Source of the DNA: CBDUXP01 sp965371225 [NCBI: uncultured bacterium]
GTDB taxonomy: Bacteria > Abyssobacteria > SURF-5 > CBDUXP01
Assembly: GCA_965371225.1 (NCBI GenBank)
Contig: CBDUXP010000011.1
Span: forward strand, 25,607 to 89,606
Reading direction: 5' to 3'
Length of the DNA stretch: 64,000 nucleotides
This document shows positions 44,551-54,140 of the stretch, in pieces (positions within the stretch are counted from its first letter, which is position 1; each line of letters starts with the position of its first letter). A program made the position numbers and the translations under genes. The notes beneath the pieces were generated by a model, which worked only from the letters and a program-made list of their open reading frames with translations, was not told where the DNA came from and ran no database searches.

Positions 44551-45183
44551 ATGCCGGAGCCGATCACGCTGGAAATTTTCTCGGACTACATCTGACCCTG
44601 GTGCTACCTCAGCACCGGGCGTGTTGACCGACTGCGCGAGACGTACGACGTTGCCGTGACGTGGACGCATTTCCCCCTGCACCCGGATACGCCGCCGGAG
44701 GGGCGGAGCATTGCCGACCTGTTCAAGGGCCGCAACTTCGACCTGGAAGCGGCGAAGATACGCATGGCGCAGCTCATGGCGGAGGAGGGTCTGCCCTACG
44801 GCGACCGCCACATGACCTACAACAGCCGCCTCGCGCAGGAGCTGGGCGCGTGGGCCGATACGCAACCGGGCGGCGACGCGATCCACGACGCGCTGTTCAA
44901 GGCCTACTTCGTGGCCGGCGTGAACCTGATGAGCGTCGACGACCTGGTGCGCATCGCCGAGCACGTGGACCTGGACGGCGCGGCGGCGCGCGAGGTCCTG
45001 GAGACGCGCAGGTTCAAAGAGCGCGTGGACGCGGACTGGATGCGGTCGGCGCGGTACCGCATCACGGGCGTGCCCACGTTCGTGGCCGAAGGGTATGCGG
45101 TGGTCGGGTGCGTGCCTTACGAAACGCTCGAGCAGCTCGTGCAGCAGGTGGGCGGGCAACCGCGCAGCATCACCACCTCGTAG
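44551..45183 (+). CDS. FrnE/DsbA-family oxidoreductase, probable selenoprotein (in-frame TGA at codon 15)
   Basis: 210 residues if TGA 44593-44595 is read as selenocysteine. The frame starts at ATG 44551, with GGAGG six bases upstream. It reads MPEPITLEIFSDYI, then TGA, then PWCYLSTGRVD and continues as a full FrnE-type DsbA protein to TAG 45181-45183. FrnE/DsbA relatives have CPWC at that position, so TGA replaces only the first redox cysteine, giving Sec15-Pro-Trp-Cys18. The cis-proline loop GVPTF is present near residue 177 and a further Cys is in VVGCVPYE. A dithiol/selenol exchange role in the cytosol (no signal peptide) is expected. Reading without recoding would give a 14-residue peptide. 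The stop TAG belongs to a GTAGGGGC repeat. Confidence 0.88.
44596..44619 (+). promoter_or_regulatory. Candidate SECIS hairpin directly after the selenocysteine codon
   Basis: Starting at the first base after TGA: CCC (44596-44598), bulged T, GGTGCT (44600-44605), loop ACCTC, AGCACC (44611-44616), GGG (44617-44619). Nine pairs. The loop is closer to TGA than the commonly described 16-37 bases. A second possible stem further out, CGG 44616-44618 with CCG 44628-44630, closes loop GCGTGTTGA that starts with G at a canonical distance. Confidence 0.5.
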
Positions 45184-49072: not shown

Positions 49073-49579
49073 TTACGTCCCGGCCGGCGACTCGGCCTCG
49101 GCGGTGGCGCGGGCCGCATCCGGGGGCGCGGTCTCCTCCCCGAGCGCAGCTCGGAGCGCTACGCGGAGGCGCTCCGGAGTGGTGTTGTCTGCGCCTACCA
49201 GGCGCGCGACTTCCTGCCCGTCTCTATAAAGGATGAGCATGGGCAGGACGTGGATCTTGAACTGCTCCACGACGTTTCTGTCGCGGACCCACAAGCGGTC
49301 GATGTCGAGCTTCGCAATGGTGGCCCGTCCGGAAAATTCTTTCGCGAGGGCGGTGATGGCCGGCAACTGCTGGCGGCAGATGCCTCACCAATCCGCAAAA
49401 CAATCCAGCAGCAGCACGCCGCGCGTGGCGAGCACCTGCTCGAGCGCGGTGGCGCGCTTCAGCTCGACCAGTGTGCCCGGGGCGGGCGCTGCTTCTTCCG
49501 CCGCGGCGGGACGGCCGCCCGTGCCGCACACGATCGCGACGCTCAAGACAGACAATATCCATGCGCGAGCTGGGTGCAT
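49073..49579 (-). CDS. Secreted thioredoxin, probable selenoprotein (in-frame TGA at codon 65)
   Basis: 168 residues if TGA at 49385-49387 is read as selenocysteine. From ATG 49577-49579 there is a signal peptide (AWILSVLSVAIVCGT, then AAA before EEAAPA). The thioredoxin domain runs from residue 40: LLLDCFADW, TGA, GICRQQLPAITAL, giving W64-Sec65-G66-I67-C68 in place of WCGxC. The cis-proline loop HVLPMLILY and the last strand VARLVGAD follow, then an acidic tail. The frame is open on both sides of the single TGA, and the upstream part alone would be a useless 64-residue export signal. It is expected to reduce or exchange disulfides outside the cytoplasm, next to MsrB and peroxiredoxin genes. 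Confidence 0.87.
49362..49384 (-). promoter_or_regulatory. Candidate SECIS hairpin directly after the selenocysteine codon
   Basis: On the minus strand, starting at the first base after TGA: GGCA, T, CTGC, loop CGCCA, GCAG, T, TGCC. Two four-pair stems are separated by a T-T mismatch; the loop has G in its second position. It has the same layout as the hairpin after the TGA at 44593: it begins immediately, has arms of 9-10 bases and a 5-base loop. Confidence 0.5.
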
Positions 49580-49754
49580 GCGCTCAACTCCTGACATACG
49601 CGTTGATGACGTTGTCCACCACCAGCCCTTCCCAGGCCCGCTTCGTGCATGGGCATGGGGGACGGAGAAACGCGCAAGCGGGACGCCCACCTGCGCGCCT
49701 GTCTGCTGGTATCTGCTGAGTCTTACGGCCGGGCGACCAGGTAGGTTTCAGCCC

Positions 49755-50351
49755 TTAGCCGCCGGGTCGGGACGCCGGGCGGGCGGGGATATGCAGGGCC
49801 GACACGGCGGGCGCCGCCGGGGCGGGCGGTGCGGCTGACGCGACGGGGTCCGGCGCGGCGCCGGCGGTGGTGGCCAGTTCTTGCTCGCTGACGCGGGTCC
49901 ACCACTCCGTCCGCCCGAGCAGCGGAATGCCCACGTACCCGCGGACCCACACCCGGTCCGCATCCACTCGCTTGACCGTGCAGCGATAGCGGCGGCCGCG
50001 GTTCGCGTCGTACGCCGTGCCGCCGAACCAGACGTTCTCCCGCTTGTGGTGCGGCCGCAACCCGGTCAACACCTCCAGCCCCAGGACGGTCTCGTCGCGC
50101 AACGCCGGATCCGGATTGCGGAGGTCGCGTTTCGGCCGGCCCGCCTCGTCCAACGGTTCGCGCAACCACACGATACGGCCGCTCAGTCGGTCAGCCTCCT
50201 GGCGGATTTCCACCTGCACGGTCTTGGCCGCGTTCCACCAGATGCCGGTGGCCCCGTCTGCGCCGGCGGCCGTGGACCAAACCGCGGCGAGCATACCGGC
50301 GAGCCCGAGGGAAGACAGGAAGCGGCGGGCTCCAGCTATGCGATAAGACAT
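49755..50351 (-). CDS. DUF2147 exported protein
   Basis: 198 residues from ATG 50349-50351 (an in-frame GTG four codons upstream is an alternative start). A signal peptide (SLGLAGMLAAVWSTAAGA) precedes a single domain beginning ATGIWWNAAKTVQVEIRQEADRLSGRIVWLREPLDEAG, the DUF2147 signature, with the closing motif RYRCTVKRVDADRVWVRGYVG. The last 50 residues are a Pro/Ala-rich tail. The family forms a lipocalin-like beta-barrel of unknown function in the periplasm. It shares direction with the Sec-thioredoxin gene, 175 bases upstream of it. Confidence 0.83.
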   Translation of the reverse strand: MSYRIAGARRFLSSLGLAGMLAAVWSTAAGADGATGIWWNAAKTVQVEIRQEADRLSGRIVWLREPLDEAGRPKRDLRNPDPALRDETVLGLEVLTGLRPHHKRENVWFGGTAYDANRGRRYRCTVKRVDADRVWVRGYVGIPLLGRTEWWTRVSEQELATTAGAAPDPVASAAPPAPAAPAVSALHIPARPASRPGG

Positions 50352-50378
50352 CAGGGCGTGCACTCCTCGGCGGGCGAT

Positions 50379-50777
50379 TCAGTCCTCGGGCTCCAGGCGG
50401 AGCGCGGCGGAATTCAGGCAGTAGCGCAGGCCGGAGGGCGCGGGCCCATCGGGAAACAGGTGGCCCAGGTGCGCACTACAGCGGCTGCACAACACCTCCG
50501 TGCGGACCATGCCCAGGCTCCCGTCCTGGTGTTCCTCCACGCGGGCGGCCGCGACCGGTGCGGTAAAGCTCGGCCAGCCGGTGCCCGAATCGAATTTCGT
50601 TCCGGAATGGAAAAGGGGCTGGCCGCAGCAGACGCAGGCGTAGGTGCCGGGGGTCGTGCAGTTCCAATATTTGCCGGAGAAGGGGCGTTCCGTGCCGTGT
50701 TCCCGCGTGACGTGATACTGCTCCGGCGTCAGCGTCTCCCGCCAATGCGCCTCACTCTCGACGATTTTCTCAGGCAC
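50379..50777 (-). CDS. msrB: Peptide methionine-(R)-sulfoxide reductase
   Basis: 132 residues, the usual MsrB length, without signal peptide. Zinc-binding CxxC pairs CVCCGQ and CSRCSA, the GTGWPSF motif and the catalytic cysteine in [11 protein letters not shown] are all present, so this is a cysteine-type MsrB. It reduces methionine-R-sulfoxide in proteins and is recycled by thioredoxin. A secreted Sec-thioredoxin gene is 800 bases away, but a cytosolic MsrB would need another thioredoxin. Confidence 0.96.
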
Positions 50778-53444: not shown

Positions 53445-54140
53445 CTAGTTGCCGCGGAACTCGTCGGCGGTGCGGCCGCCCACCGTGCCGTCGGCGTAGC
53501 GCGCATAGGCCTTGATGTAGAACTCGGGCGGATTGCTGGTGGCCTTGACGGACTCCCGCTCGCCCATGGTGGCGAACCACGCCTTGAACCGCGTGCATTC
53601 CGCGGGAATCTCGATGTCCCGGTAGTGCTCGGCCACGGCGAACCGCTCCACGAACGGGTACCACGTGAGGTCCACCAGCGTCAGGTCCGCGCCCATCCAG
53701 TACGGCCCGTCCCCCTGCAGCTTCTCCAGCCCCTCGCGCTCCACGAAGCGGAACTGCTCCTCCACCTTCGCCTTGAGCTTCGCCTGCTTCTCCGGGTCCT
53801 GCGTCAGCAGCAGCCGGTAGTACGCCGGGATGAACTGCGTGTTGCAGTAGTCGATCCAGATGCGCGCCAGCGCCTTCGCCCCCGCATCCTCGGGCAGCAG
53901 TTGCACCTGCGGGTACACCTCATCCAGATACTCGTTGATGATCGCGCTCTCGTACAGGGTGCGGCCGTTGTGCCTCACCAGCGGCACCTTGCCGTACGGC
54001 GACATGTCCAGGAACCACTGCGGCTTCTCCCGCAGGTCCACTTCGGTCAGGGAATACTCCACGCCCTTCTCCAGCAGCACCATCCGCGTGCGCTGCGCGA
54101 AGGGACACACGTTTGCGCTATAGATTTCCACGTCCGGCAT
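53445..54140 (-). CDS. Glutathione S-transferase
   Basis: 231 residues. N-terminal thioredoxin-like domain (1-80) with VCPFAQRTRMVLLEKGVEY: a Cys in the place of the catalytic residue, as in omega-type GSTs. The GSH-binding SPYGKVPLVRHNGRTLYESAIINEYL follows. The C-terminal helical domain runs from 90 to 231. Such GSTs act as thiol transferases or dehydroascorbate reductases. Start ATG 54138-54140 is set by the family start. Confidence 0.92.
   Translation of the reverse strand: MPDVEIYSANVCPFAQRTRMVLLEKGVEYSLTEVDLREKPQWFLDMSPYGKVPLVRHNGRTLYESAIINEYLDEVYPQVQLLPEDAGAKALARIWIDYCNTQFIPAYYRLLLTQDPEKQAKLKAKVEEQFRFVEREGLEKLQGDGPYWMGADLTLVDLTWYPFVERFAVAEHYRDIEIPAECTRFKAWFATMGERESVKATSNPPEFYIKAYARYADGTVGGRTADEFRGN

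What the first reader, a model, noticed from the sequence alone, without database searches (positions are those of the whole stretch)
49073..49579. Secreted thioredoxin with TGA as the first active-site residue (W-Sec-G-I-C)
A signal peptide and thioredoxin N-half run in frame into TGA at 49385-49387, then continue as GICRQQLPAITAL with the cis-Pro loop and final strand. The TGA stands for the first cysteine of WCGxC. Together with the FrnE-like gene 4 kb away, this makes two independent TGA-for-redox-Cys replacements in one window. A Sec-thioredoxin exported from the cytoplasm would have to be folded with Sec before export and used in an oxidising compartment.
Basis: partly seen in the sequence, partly recalled or inferred. 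Interest (0 to 1): 0.92.

Follow-up and report, generated by a model that had tools for sequence, protein, structure and literature searches.

The report
Exported thioredoxin probably containing selenocysteine
A bacterial gene for an exported thioredoxin has the codon TGA exactly where its key cysteine should be, so it very probably carries selenium there; this is a further example of a known kind of protein rather than a new kind.

Summary
In detail: on the minus strand (49579 to 49073) an ATG opens a signal-peptide-like start and a thioredoxin whose first active-site cysteine codon (residue 65) is TGA (49387-49385). The frame continues through Cys68, cis-Pro113 and the rest of the fold to TAA. 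All 23 homologues put in one alignment have Cys at residue 65. The second TGA, in the FrnE/DsbA-like gene at 44593, is well supported: all 11 relatives that passed strict cut-offs in two phyla have TGA at the same codon, with a shared, covarying hairpin. So the organism very probably decodes TGA as selenocysteine, and this thioredoxin is best read as an exported UxxC selenoprotein. Weak points: no TGA-bearing orthologue was found; its hairpin misses the published SECIS energy limit and is no better than chance; the genome is not held, so sel genes could not be tested; export is read from sequence only. Sec-thioredoxin and DsbA-like UxxC proteins are listed families, and thioredoxin-fold W-U-G-x-C proteins, mostly visibly exported, turned up in 16 other bacterial genomes and one viral contig. 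New member of a known kind. That it must fold before export does not follow.

The parts
49073..49579 (-). Thioredoxin gene read through its TGA: 168 residues, ATG at 49579, TAA at 49075-49073
   Evidence: Translation with TGA=U; Pfam Thioredoxin 1e-16; AlphaFold2 model with a 24-row alignment, mean pLDDT 82.5, ten-residue block means 87-96 over residues 51-150; solved thioredoxins Z up to 18.2, rmsd 1.2 A over 105 residues
49385..49387 (-). In-frame TGA at residue 65, first active-site position of W-x-G-I-C; proposed selenocysteine
   Evidence: Cys in 23 of 23 aligned homologues and in 34 of 34 and 11 of 11 further loci, with overlaps
49499..49579 (-). Signal-peptide-like N-terminus (residues 1-27): MHPAR, hydrophobic core, then RPAAA before EE
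   Evidence: Sequence; best 12-residue Kyte-Doolittle mean 2.63 (residues 8-19), against -0.5 to 1.8 in six other window proteins. No SignalP run
49376..49378 (-). Cys68, the resolving cysteine
   Evidence: Invariant column in A3
49241..49243 (-). Pro113, the cis-proline of the thioredoxin fold
   Evidence: Invariant column in A3; cis geometry inferred from the family
49359..49374 (-). Only hairpin found for this TGA with spacing inside 16-37 nt: GCC.GC [AGUU] GC.GGC, spacing 16, 5 bp with one mismatch, -5.5 kcal/mol; weak SECIS candidate
   Evidence: misses the -7.5 kcal/mol limit in PMC13188914 Fig. 2
49362..49384 (-). Stronger hairpin directly after the TGA (spacing 9, loop CGCCA, -10.9 kcal/mol); outside the published spacing range
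49588..49593 (-). CAGGAG, Shine-Dalgarno-like
44551..45183 (+). FrnE/DsbA-like gene with TGA at codon 15 (SDYI-U-PWC), 210 residues
   Evidence: Pfam DSBA 3.5e-31
44593..44595 (+). TGA of the FrnE-like gene; TGA at the same codon in all 11 relatives that passed the cut-offs
44609..44627 (+). SECIS-like hairpin of the FrnE-like gene: UCAGCAC [CGGGC] GUGUUGA, spacing 20
   Evidence: same stem position in the 11 relatives, 92.9% of cells paired, 3 of 7 pairs with changes on both sides
50379..50777 (-). MsrB (peptide-methionine R-sulfoxide reductase), cysteine form, two genes upstream in the same direction
   Evidence: TIGR00357 4.2e-55
49755..50363 (-). DUF2147 protein, 15 nt after MsrB and 175 nt upstream of the thioredoxin
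   Evidence: PF09917 3e-27

Best explanation
The gene encodes an exported thioredoxin whose attacking active-site residue is selenocysteine (W-U-G-I-C). SelB-bound tRNA-Sec reads the UGA during translation; the signal peptide then takes the chain out of the cytoplasm, most likely unfolded by the Sec route. Outside, Sec65 attacks disulfides or sulfenic acids of exported proteins and Cys68 resolves the mixed selenenyl-sulfide; a membrane electron carrier of the DsbD/CcdA kind would have to re-reduce it. Shown here: the open frame, the TGA at an otherwise invariant cysteine, thioredoxin homology after the TGA, the fold prediction, and a neighbouring gene whose TGA is present in 11 of 11 relatives. 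Inferred: Sec insertion itself, export, the electron donor and the substrates.
For: TGA at a column that is Cys in 23 of 23 aligned homologues, with Cys68 and Pro113 kept. Thioredoxin homology and coding bias continue after the TGA. The FrnE-like gene 4.8 kb away: 8 of 8 Chloroflexota matches (251 genomes, E <= 1e-35) and 3 of 3 Actinomycetota matches (198 genomes, E <= 1e-30) have TGA at the same codon, with a shared covarying hairpin. All 11 of those genomes have selB over its cut-off, against 31 of 45 others, Fisher p = 0.029. TGA ends 13 of 49 called genes, so it is not reassigned throughout. Same arrangement elsewhere: W-U-G-x-C proteins of thioredoxin fold in 15 Chloroflexota and 1 Actinomycetota genomes, 13 of the 16 with a visible export or anchor signal, and one viral contig. 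Sec-Trx is an established family.
Against: No relative of this thioredoxin with TGA was found in genomes. Of the hits among 201 Chloroflexota genomes I aligned the 10 best and all 17 rows listed with a TGA: all have Cys at residue 65, the TGAs lying elsewhere. The single hit at 1e-17 among 299 Pseudomonadota is a cysteine form, and 198 Actinomycetota gave none at 1e-17. The spacing-compliant hairpin misses the -7.5 kcal/mol limit, and 151 of 300 synonymous resamples are as good. The published criteria do not discriminate here: 66% of 1071 TGAs in this 70% GC window reach -7.5. sel genes were not testable; Rfam found no tRNA-Sec in the window. Export rests on hydropathy and inspection.
Confidence: 0.75

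Rival explanations
1. The TGA is a real nonsense mutation in an organism that does decode Sec elsewhere (the FrnE-like gene): the thioredoxin is a recent pseudogene or a truncated 64-residue remnant.
For: No TGA-bearing orthologue found; SECIS candidate weak; codon bias of the gene is low, below 97% of in-frame windows.
Against: A random nonsense change would have to hit one catalytic cysteine among about 740 codons one step from TGA (rough chance 0.003). The frame after the TGA keeps homology, Cys68, Pro113 and a full predicted fold, with no second stop.
Confidence: 0.1
2. Sequencing or assembly error at 49385-49387; the true codon is TGC or TGT and this is an ordinary exported cysteine thioredoxin.
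For: Single contig, no reads available, and all 23 aligned homologues have Cys.
Against: Needs one error exactly at a catalytic cysteine in a window that holds another TGA-for-Cys gene whose TGA is conserved in relatives.
Confidence: 0.07
3. A Sec-thioredoxin, but not exported in soluble form: the N-terminus is an uncleaved membrane anchor, or translation starts downstream.
For: Cleavage not tested. In the Chloroflexota and Actinomycetota analogues with a visible N-terminus the protein is a lipoprotein (12) or anchored (1).
Against: Short hydrophobic core followed by small residues RPAAA; Shine-Dalgarno-like motif before this ATG. An anchor would still place the domain outside or at the membrane.
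Confidence: 0.08

Closest known systems
Selenocysteine-containing thioredoxin (Trx, PF00085, UxxC)
   Same: Thioredoxin fold, W-U-G-x-C motif, Sec in the attacking position. Listed in the validated part of the tables in PMC13188914 and PMC9312934 (passages read); PMC1794560 lists thioredoxin selenoproteins for Geobacter, Treponema denticola, Carboxydothermus, and two plus a DsbA-like one in Anaeromyxobacter dehalogenans (passages)
   Different: This one has a signal-peptide-like N-terminus, a four-residue insertion after Asp94 and no consensus SECIS; whether listed members are exported was not checked
DsbA-like selenoprotein form 1 (PF01323, UxxC)
   Same: The FrnE-like neighbour belongs here: UxxC at the same place, TGA in 11 of 11 relatives
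   Different: Nothing notable; the window's copy is at most 43% identical to the relatives found
TlpA/ResA-like and Prx-like selenoproteins of loci L073, L090-L103, L130 (compare NCBIfam names 'thioredoxin-like (seleno)lipoprotein' NF041057 and 'ResA-like WAxxUGC' NF041054, seen as below-cut-off matches)
   Same: Thioredoxin-fold oxidoreductases, mostly visibly exported, with Sec in the first active-site position
   Different: AhpC/TSA or TlpA-like domains, mostly lipoproteins with long linkers, not classical thioredoxins
Thioredoxin lipoprotein of viral contig IMGVR_UViG_3300030104_005320 (L149/L155)
   Same: Exported thioredoxin with TGA in W-x-GPC
   Different: Lipoprotein signal, only 21% identical over the domain, AT-rich; unverified

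Membership tests
Sec-thioredoxin (PF00085, UxxC) | Thioredoxin-family homology over the domain | tested here: met
   PF00085 61.2 bits against a cut-off of 23.5; TIGR01068 62.3 bits, below its 96.8 cut-off; thioredoxins and thioredoxin fusions lead the Foldseek and VIA lists
Sec-thioredoxin (PF00085, UxxC) | In-frame TGA aligned with the first active-site Cys of cysteine homologues | tested here: met
   23 of 23 Cys at column 65
Sec-thioredoxin (PF00085, UxxC) | Bacterial SECIS: loop 3-9 nt, stem 4-16 bp, G in the first two loop positions, spacing 16-37, MFE <= -7.5 kcal/mol | tested here: inconclusive
   Loop, stem, G and spacing met by one hairpin; energy -5.5 (-6.6 with dangles) not met. 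The test does not discriminate in this GC-rich DNA; PMC12013277 reports 13% of known genes in its test genomes missed by bSECISearch
Sec-thioredoxin (PF00085, UxxC) | TGA conserved in at least one more homologue of the same protein | tested here: inconclusive
   None among the genome hits aligned in three phyla; a distant viral thioredoxin has it. Other phyla could not be reached
Sec-thioredoxin (PF00085, UxxC) | selA, selB, selC, selD in the same genome | not testable with these tools
   No genome held for the window
DsbA-like selenoprotein (PF01323, UxxC), the FrnE-like neighbour | DSBA domain, TGA at the first active-site Cys, TGA in other genomes, SECIS-like hairpin | tested here: met
   Its own hairpin is -6.8 (-7.5 with dangles), at the edge of the energy limit
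Exported (signal peptide) protein | Cleavable signal peptide | tested here: inconclusive
   Hydropathy and inspection only; no SignalP available
Genome-wide TGA reassignment (codes 4, 25) | TGA not used as stop | tested here: not met
   TGA ends 13 of 49 called genes; TAG 27, TAA 9

The most novel reading that the evidence does not exclude
The thioredoxin is decoded through an atypical SECIS. The only strong hairpin starts at the base after the UGA (spacing 9), where a ribosome waiting at the UGA would melt it, so that a weak distal hairpin (spacing 14-16) can form; the FrnE-like neighbour also has a strong proximal hairpin that overlaps its SECIS stem. If real, Sec insertion here would be gated by ribosome arrival, and this would belong to the bacterial selenoprotein genes whose SECIS lies outside the published model.
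Probability: 0.1. Interest if true: 0.6.

Novelty: new member of a known kind. Interest (0 to 1): 0.36.

Why it matters
If true, it adds an exported classical thioredoxin to the exported selenoproteins: selenium chemistry used outside the cytoplasm, where a selenenyl-sulfide should recover from over-oxidation better than a disulfide (general chemistry, not tested). Read by the standard code the gene is a 64-residue fragment. The survey made for it also suggests that W-U-G-x-C thioredoxin-fold proteins are not rare in Chloroflexota (at least 15 of 251 sampled genomes, 12 of them with a visible export or anchor signal).

Tried and rejected
Organism: not identified. The one genome-contig scan gave six distant thioredoxins, 24-40% identical, from unrelated phyla, and no genome is held. 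Searches in Chloroflexota, Pseudomonadota and Actinomycetota samples gave no close relative, so the phylum is open. A direct search of viral contigs found no relative of either protein.

SECIS as proof: rejected as non-discriminating. 66% of 1071 TGAs in the window have a hairpin at or below -7.5 kcal/mol within the spacing range; synonymous resamples do as well in 151 of 300 cases for the thioredoxin and 263 of 300 for the FrnE-like gene. For the FrnE-like gene the evidence is conservation and covariation, not energy. There too one measure, further pair types, is not above shuffles (232 of 500 as high), and the structure was taken from folds of the same sequences.

Other stops in hits: the 17 Chloroflexota thioredoxin rows listed with a TGA proved to be cysteine proteins at residue 65, the TGAs lying outside the domain. 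Weaker FrnE matches above the E-value limits were not looked at and may include cysteine forms.

Pattern survey limits: in Chloroflexota 74 places in 61 of 251 genomes matched, against 17 for the reversed control pattern as I counted them. A script screened 46 of the 74 (30 loci given plus 20 fetched, four of them the same places); the 20 were picked by eye for a plausible motif, and only contexts with 16 or more codons before and 21 or more after were printed, so 15 real cases is a minimum. Three of the 15 (L096, L097, L102) are cut by contig ends, so their export is by analogy. In Actinomycetota 33 places in 30 of 196 genomes (control 20); 30 screened, one real. In viral contigs 16 of 16 read, one real.

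First structure model without alignment was poor (pLDDT 46) and was not used. A first fold of the FrnE-like site showed a strong hairpin not seen in the relatives; only the comparison revealed the shared one. No SignalP or DALI was run. The paper on Sec in thioredoxin (PMC5094351) is not held. Searches for exported or periplasmic selenoproteins in print (20 of 36 papers listed, 11 of 11, judged by title and start of abstract) showed no paper on a bacterial exported Sec-thioredoxin; phrase searches are narrow and this is no proof of absence. selB comparison: the 45 comparison genomes are the first handles of two earlier samples without a FrnE hit, not a random draw. The '2 of 2' coincidence figure counts only codons one substitution from TGA and is rough.

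Full report
What is there. The gene lies on the minus strand, 49579 to 49073. Reading TGA as U gives one 168-residue protein with a single TGA at residue 65 and a TAA at the end. It starts MHPARAWILSVLSVAIVCGTGGRPAAAEE, has a Shine-Dalgarno-like CAGGAG 8 bases before the ATG, and a thioredoxin domain from about residue 36. Pfam Thioredoxin matches at 1e-16. The 103 residues after the TGA match alone at 6.3e-9, beginning at profile position 31; the 64 residues before it do not match alone. NCBIfam's thioredoxin model matches at 62.3 bits, under its 96.8 cut-off, so it is a divergent thioredoxin.

More than chance. In an alignment with 23 homologues from bacterial, archaeal and viral contigs, columns 65, 68 and 113 are Cys, Cys, Pro in all 23 other rows; the window's TGA is at column 65. 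The 23 are a choice from 34 loci; the one left-out locus with a TGA there, L155, is discussed below. Of 34 loci aligned, recounted, and 11 more, all have Cys at residue 65; some of these loci overlap. The A3 alignment shows a four-residue insertion (columns 95-98) that none of the 23 share. Codon bias after the TGA (0.136 per codon) exceeds 99.97% of off-frame windows but is lower than 97% of in-frame windows; the part before the TGA is at 0.079, so the whole gene is weakly biased. AlphaFold2 with that alignment gives mean pLDDT 82.5, with block means of 87-96 over residues 51-150. Solved thioredoxins lead both structure lists (Thermus thioredoxin 2cvk Z 18.2, 1.2 A over 105 residues).

The neighbour. 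The FrnE/DsbA-like gene (44551-45183, +) has TGA at codon 15 of SDYI-U-PWC. Searched with this protein, 251 Chloroflexota genomes gave 8 matches at E <= 1e-35 and 198 Actinomycetota genomes gave 3 at E <= 1e-30; 249 Pseudomonadota gave none at 1e-30. All 11 have TGA at the same codon. Matches weaker than these limits were not examined. The 39 bases from the TGA align without gaps in the 12 sequences and share a 7-bp stem with a G early in the loop: 92.9% of cells pair (0 of 500 shuffles as high), 3 of 7 pairs have changes on both sides (27 of 500 shuffles reach that), further pair types are not above shuffles (232 of 500), and slid versions fall to 19-55% paired. All 11 genomes carry selB over its cut-off, against 31 of 45 comparison genomes (p = 0.029). 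So the FrnE-like gene is very probably a selenoprotein gene, and the organism very probably decodes Sec. The 15 plasmid-borne relatives listed, of 724, are 30-32% identical.

What supports Sec in the thioredoxin, and what does not. Given a Sec-decoding organism, a TGA exactly at the attacking cysteine of a thioredoxin is best read as Sec. TGA is not reassigned generally, since it ends 13 of 49 called genes. Against this, the published bacterial SECIS model (loop 3-9 nt, stem 4-16 bp, G in the first two loop positions, spacing 16-37, MFE <= -7.5; PMC13188914, passages read) is met on all points but energy by one hairpin (GCC.GC[AGUU]GC.GGC, spacing 16, -5.5 kcal/mol, -6.6 with dangles). The model cannot decide here: 66% of 1071 window TGAs reach the limit, and 151 of 300 synonymous resamples equal the observed hairpin. 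PMC12013277 reports that bSECISearch missed 13% of known genes in its test genomes (passage). No orthologue with TGA was found: of the hits in 139 of 201 Chloroflexota genomes, the 10 best and all 17 rows listed with a TGA were aligned and are cysteine forms; the single Pseudomonadota hit is one too, and Actinomycetota gave none at 1e-17. In the 11 genomes with the FrnE-type TGA gene, 9 had thioredoxin matches, 11 in all, every one with Cys at residue 65.

Export. Residues 8-19 have a mean hydropathy of 2.63, against -0.5 to 1.8 for the best stretch of six other window proteins. A short RPAAA follows. Cys18 lies in the core but the residues before it (AIV) do not make a good lipobox (recalled rule). 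There is no twin arginine. So a general secretory signal peptide is likely; this was not tested with a trained predictor. Since that route moves unfolded chains, folding with Sec before export is not needed.

Is an exported W-U-G-x-C protein unusual? A DNA pattern for A-x-W-U-G-x-C matched 74 places in 61 of 251 Chloroflexota genomes (17 places for the reversed control); of 46 places screened, 15 lie in real thioredoxin-fold proteins. Thirteen (L090-L102) read FYRAFW-U-G-x-C; one of them, L098, was tested and is AhpC/TSA (2.7e-27). The ten with a complete N-terminus have a lipobox-like LAAC, LTAC, FAAC or LSAC and a long proline/threonine-rich linker; three are cut by contig ends. L073 and L103 look TlpA/ResA-like, by their sequence, with a hydrophobic anchor and a lipobox. 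In 196 Actinomycetota genomes one of 30 places screened is real, L130, with a lipobox and FWAPW-U-GTC. In viral contigs one of 16 is real: a lipoprotein thioredoxin reading ATW-U-GPCKK in a 115.9-kb contig, whose 27 other viral relatives all have Cys. NCBIfam already holds models named 'thioredoxin-like (seleno)lipoprotein' and 'ResA-like WAxxUGC'. So export of a Sec oxidoreductase is not new in kind.

Place in what is known. The prokaryotic selenoprotein tables of 2022 and 2026 name Trx (PF00085, UxxC) in their validated part and DsbA-like UxxC among predictions (PMC9312934 and PMC13188914, passages). PMC1794560 lists Anaeromyxobacter dehalogenans with two thioredoxin selenoproteins and a DsbA-like one, the same pair of families as in this window (passage). 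PMC1088965 and PMC2398784 list both families in marine data (passages). I therefore file the gene as a new member of the Sec-thioredoxin kind, with an export signal, and not as a new kind.

How it probably works. MsrB and DUF2147 lie just upstream in the same direction, 15 bases apart; 175 bases separate DUF2147 from the thioredoxin. A Cys-form peroxiredoxin weakly similar to the SelL-related model (53.6 bits, cut-off 120) and a GST-like gene lie within 5 kb. This suggests a block of oxidative-damage genes (inference). MsrB has no obvious signal peptide, so it is probably not a direct client of an exported thioredoxin. The likely role is reduction of disulfides or sulfenic acids outside the cytoplasm, with electrons from a membrane carrier that I did not see in the genes I read; I made no search for one.

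Confidence. Sec at residue 65 about 0.8; export about 0.85 given the protein is made; both together about 0.75, allowing for shared doubts.

Noticed in passing
L149:4663-4983 (+), also L155; viral contig IMGVR_UViG_3300030104_005320: A viral contig encodes a lipoprotein thioredoxin with TGA in W-U-G-P-C. The contig looks standard-code (Trp by TGG in five genes checked, one of which ends in TGA). The bases after the TGA can form a GAAAC[AGUU]GUUUC hairpin, but folding is weak and no better than shuffles (62 of 200 as good). It may be a phage-borne selenoprotein gene; 27 of 27 other viral relatives have Cys. A phrase search listed 9 papers, none on phages by title.
   Followed up: partly
L090-L102 (13 Chloroflexota genomes): A recurrent protein with FYRAFW-U-G-x-C (L098 tested: AhpC/TSA), ten of 13 visibly lipoproteins with a long Pro/Thr-rich linker; in 9 of 13 the best spacing-compliant hairpin has loop GUG at spacing 21.
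   Followed up: partly
window, 49 called genes: TAG is the commonest stop (27 of 49; TGA 13, TAA 9) in 70% GC DNA, where I would expect TGA to lead (expectation recalled). It could reflect avoidance of TGA in a Sec-decoding genome; untested.
   Followed up: no
window 44597-44619 and 49362-49384: Both TGAs are followed at once by a strong hairpin (-15 and -11 kcal/mol) that overlaps the candidate SECIS stem; in the FrnE-like gene the proximal one does not appear in the folds of the relatives.
   Followed up: partly
window 53557-53643 (-): ARAGORN calls a tRNA-Ser (CGA) inside the GST-like gene; Rfam does not find it at its gathering score, so probably spurious.
   Followed up: no
genome G066, seven contigs, three matches near contig starts: The 23-base match GCCACGTGGTGAGGCCGCTGCCA occurs in seven places in one Chloroflexota genome, so it probably lies in a repeated, perhaps mobile, element.
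   Followed up: no
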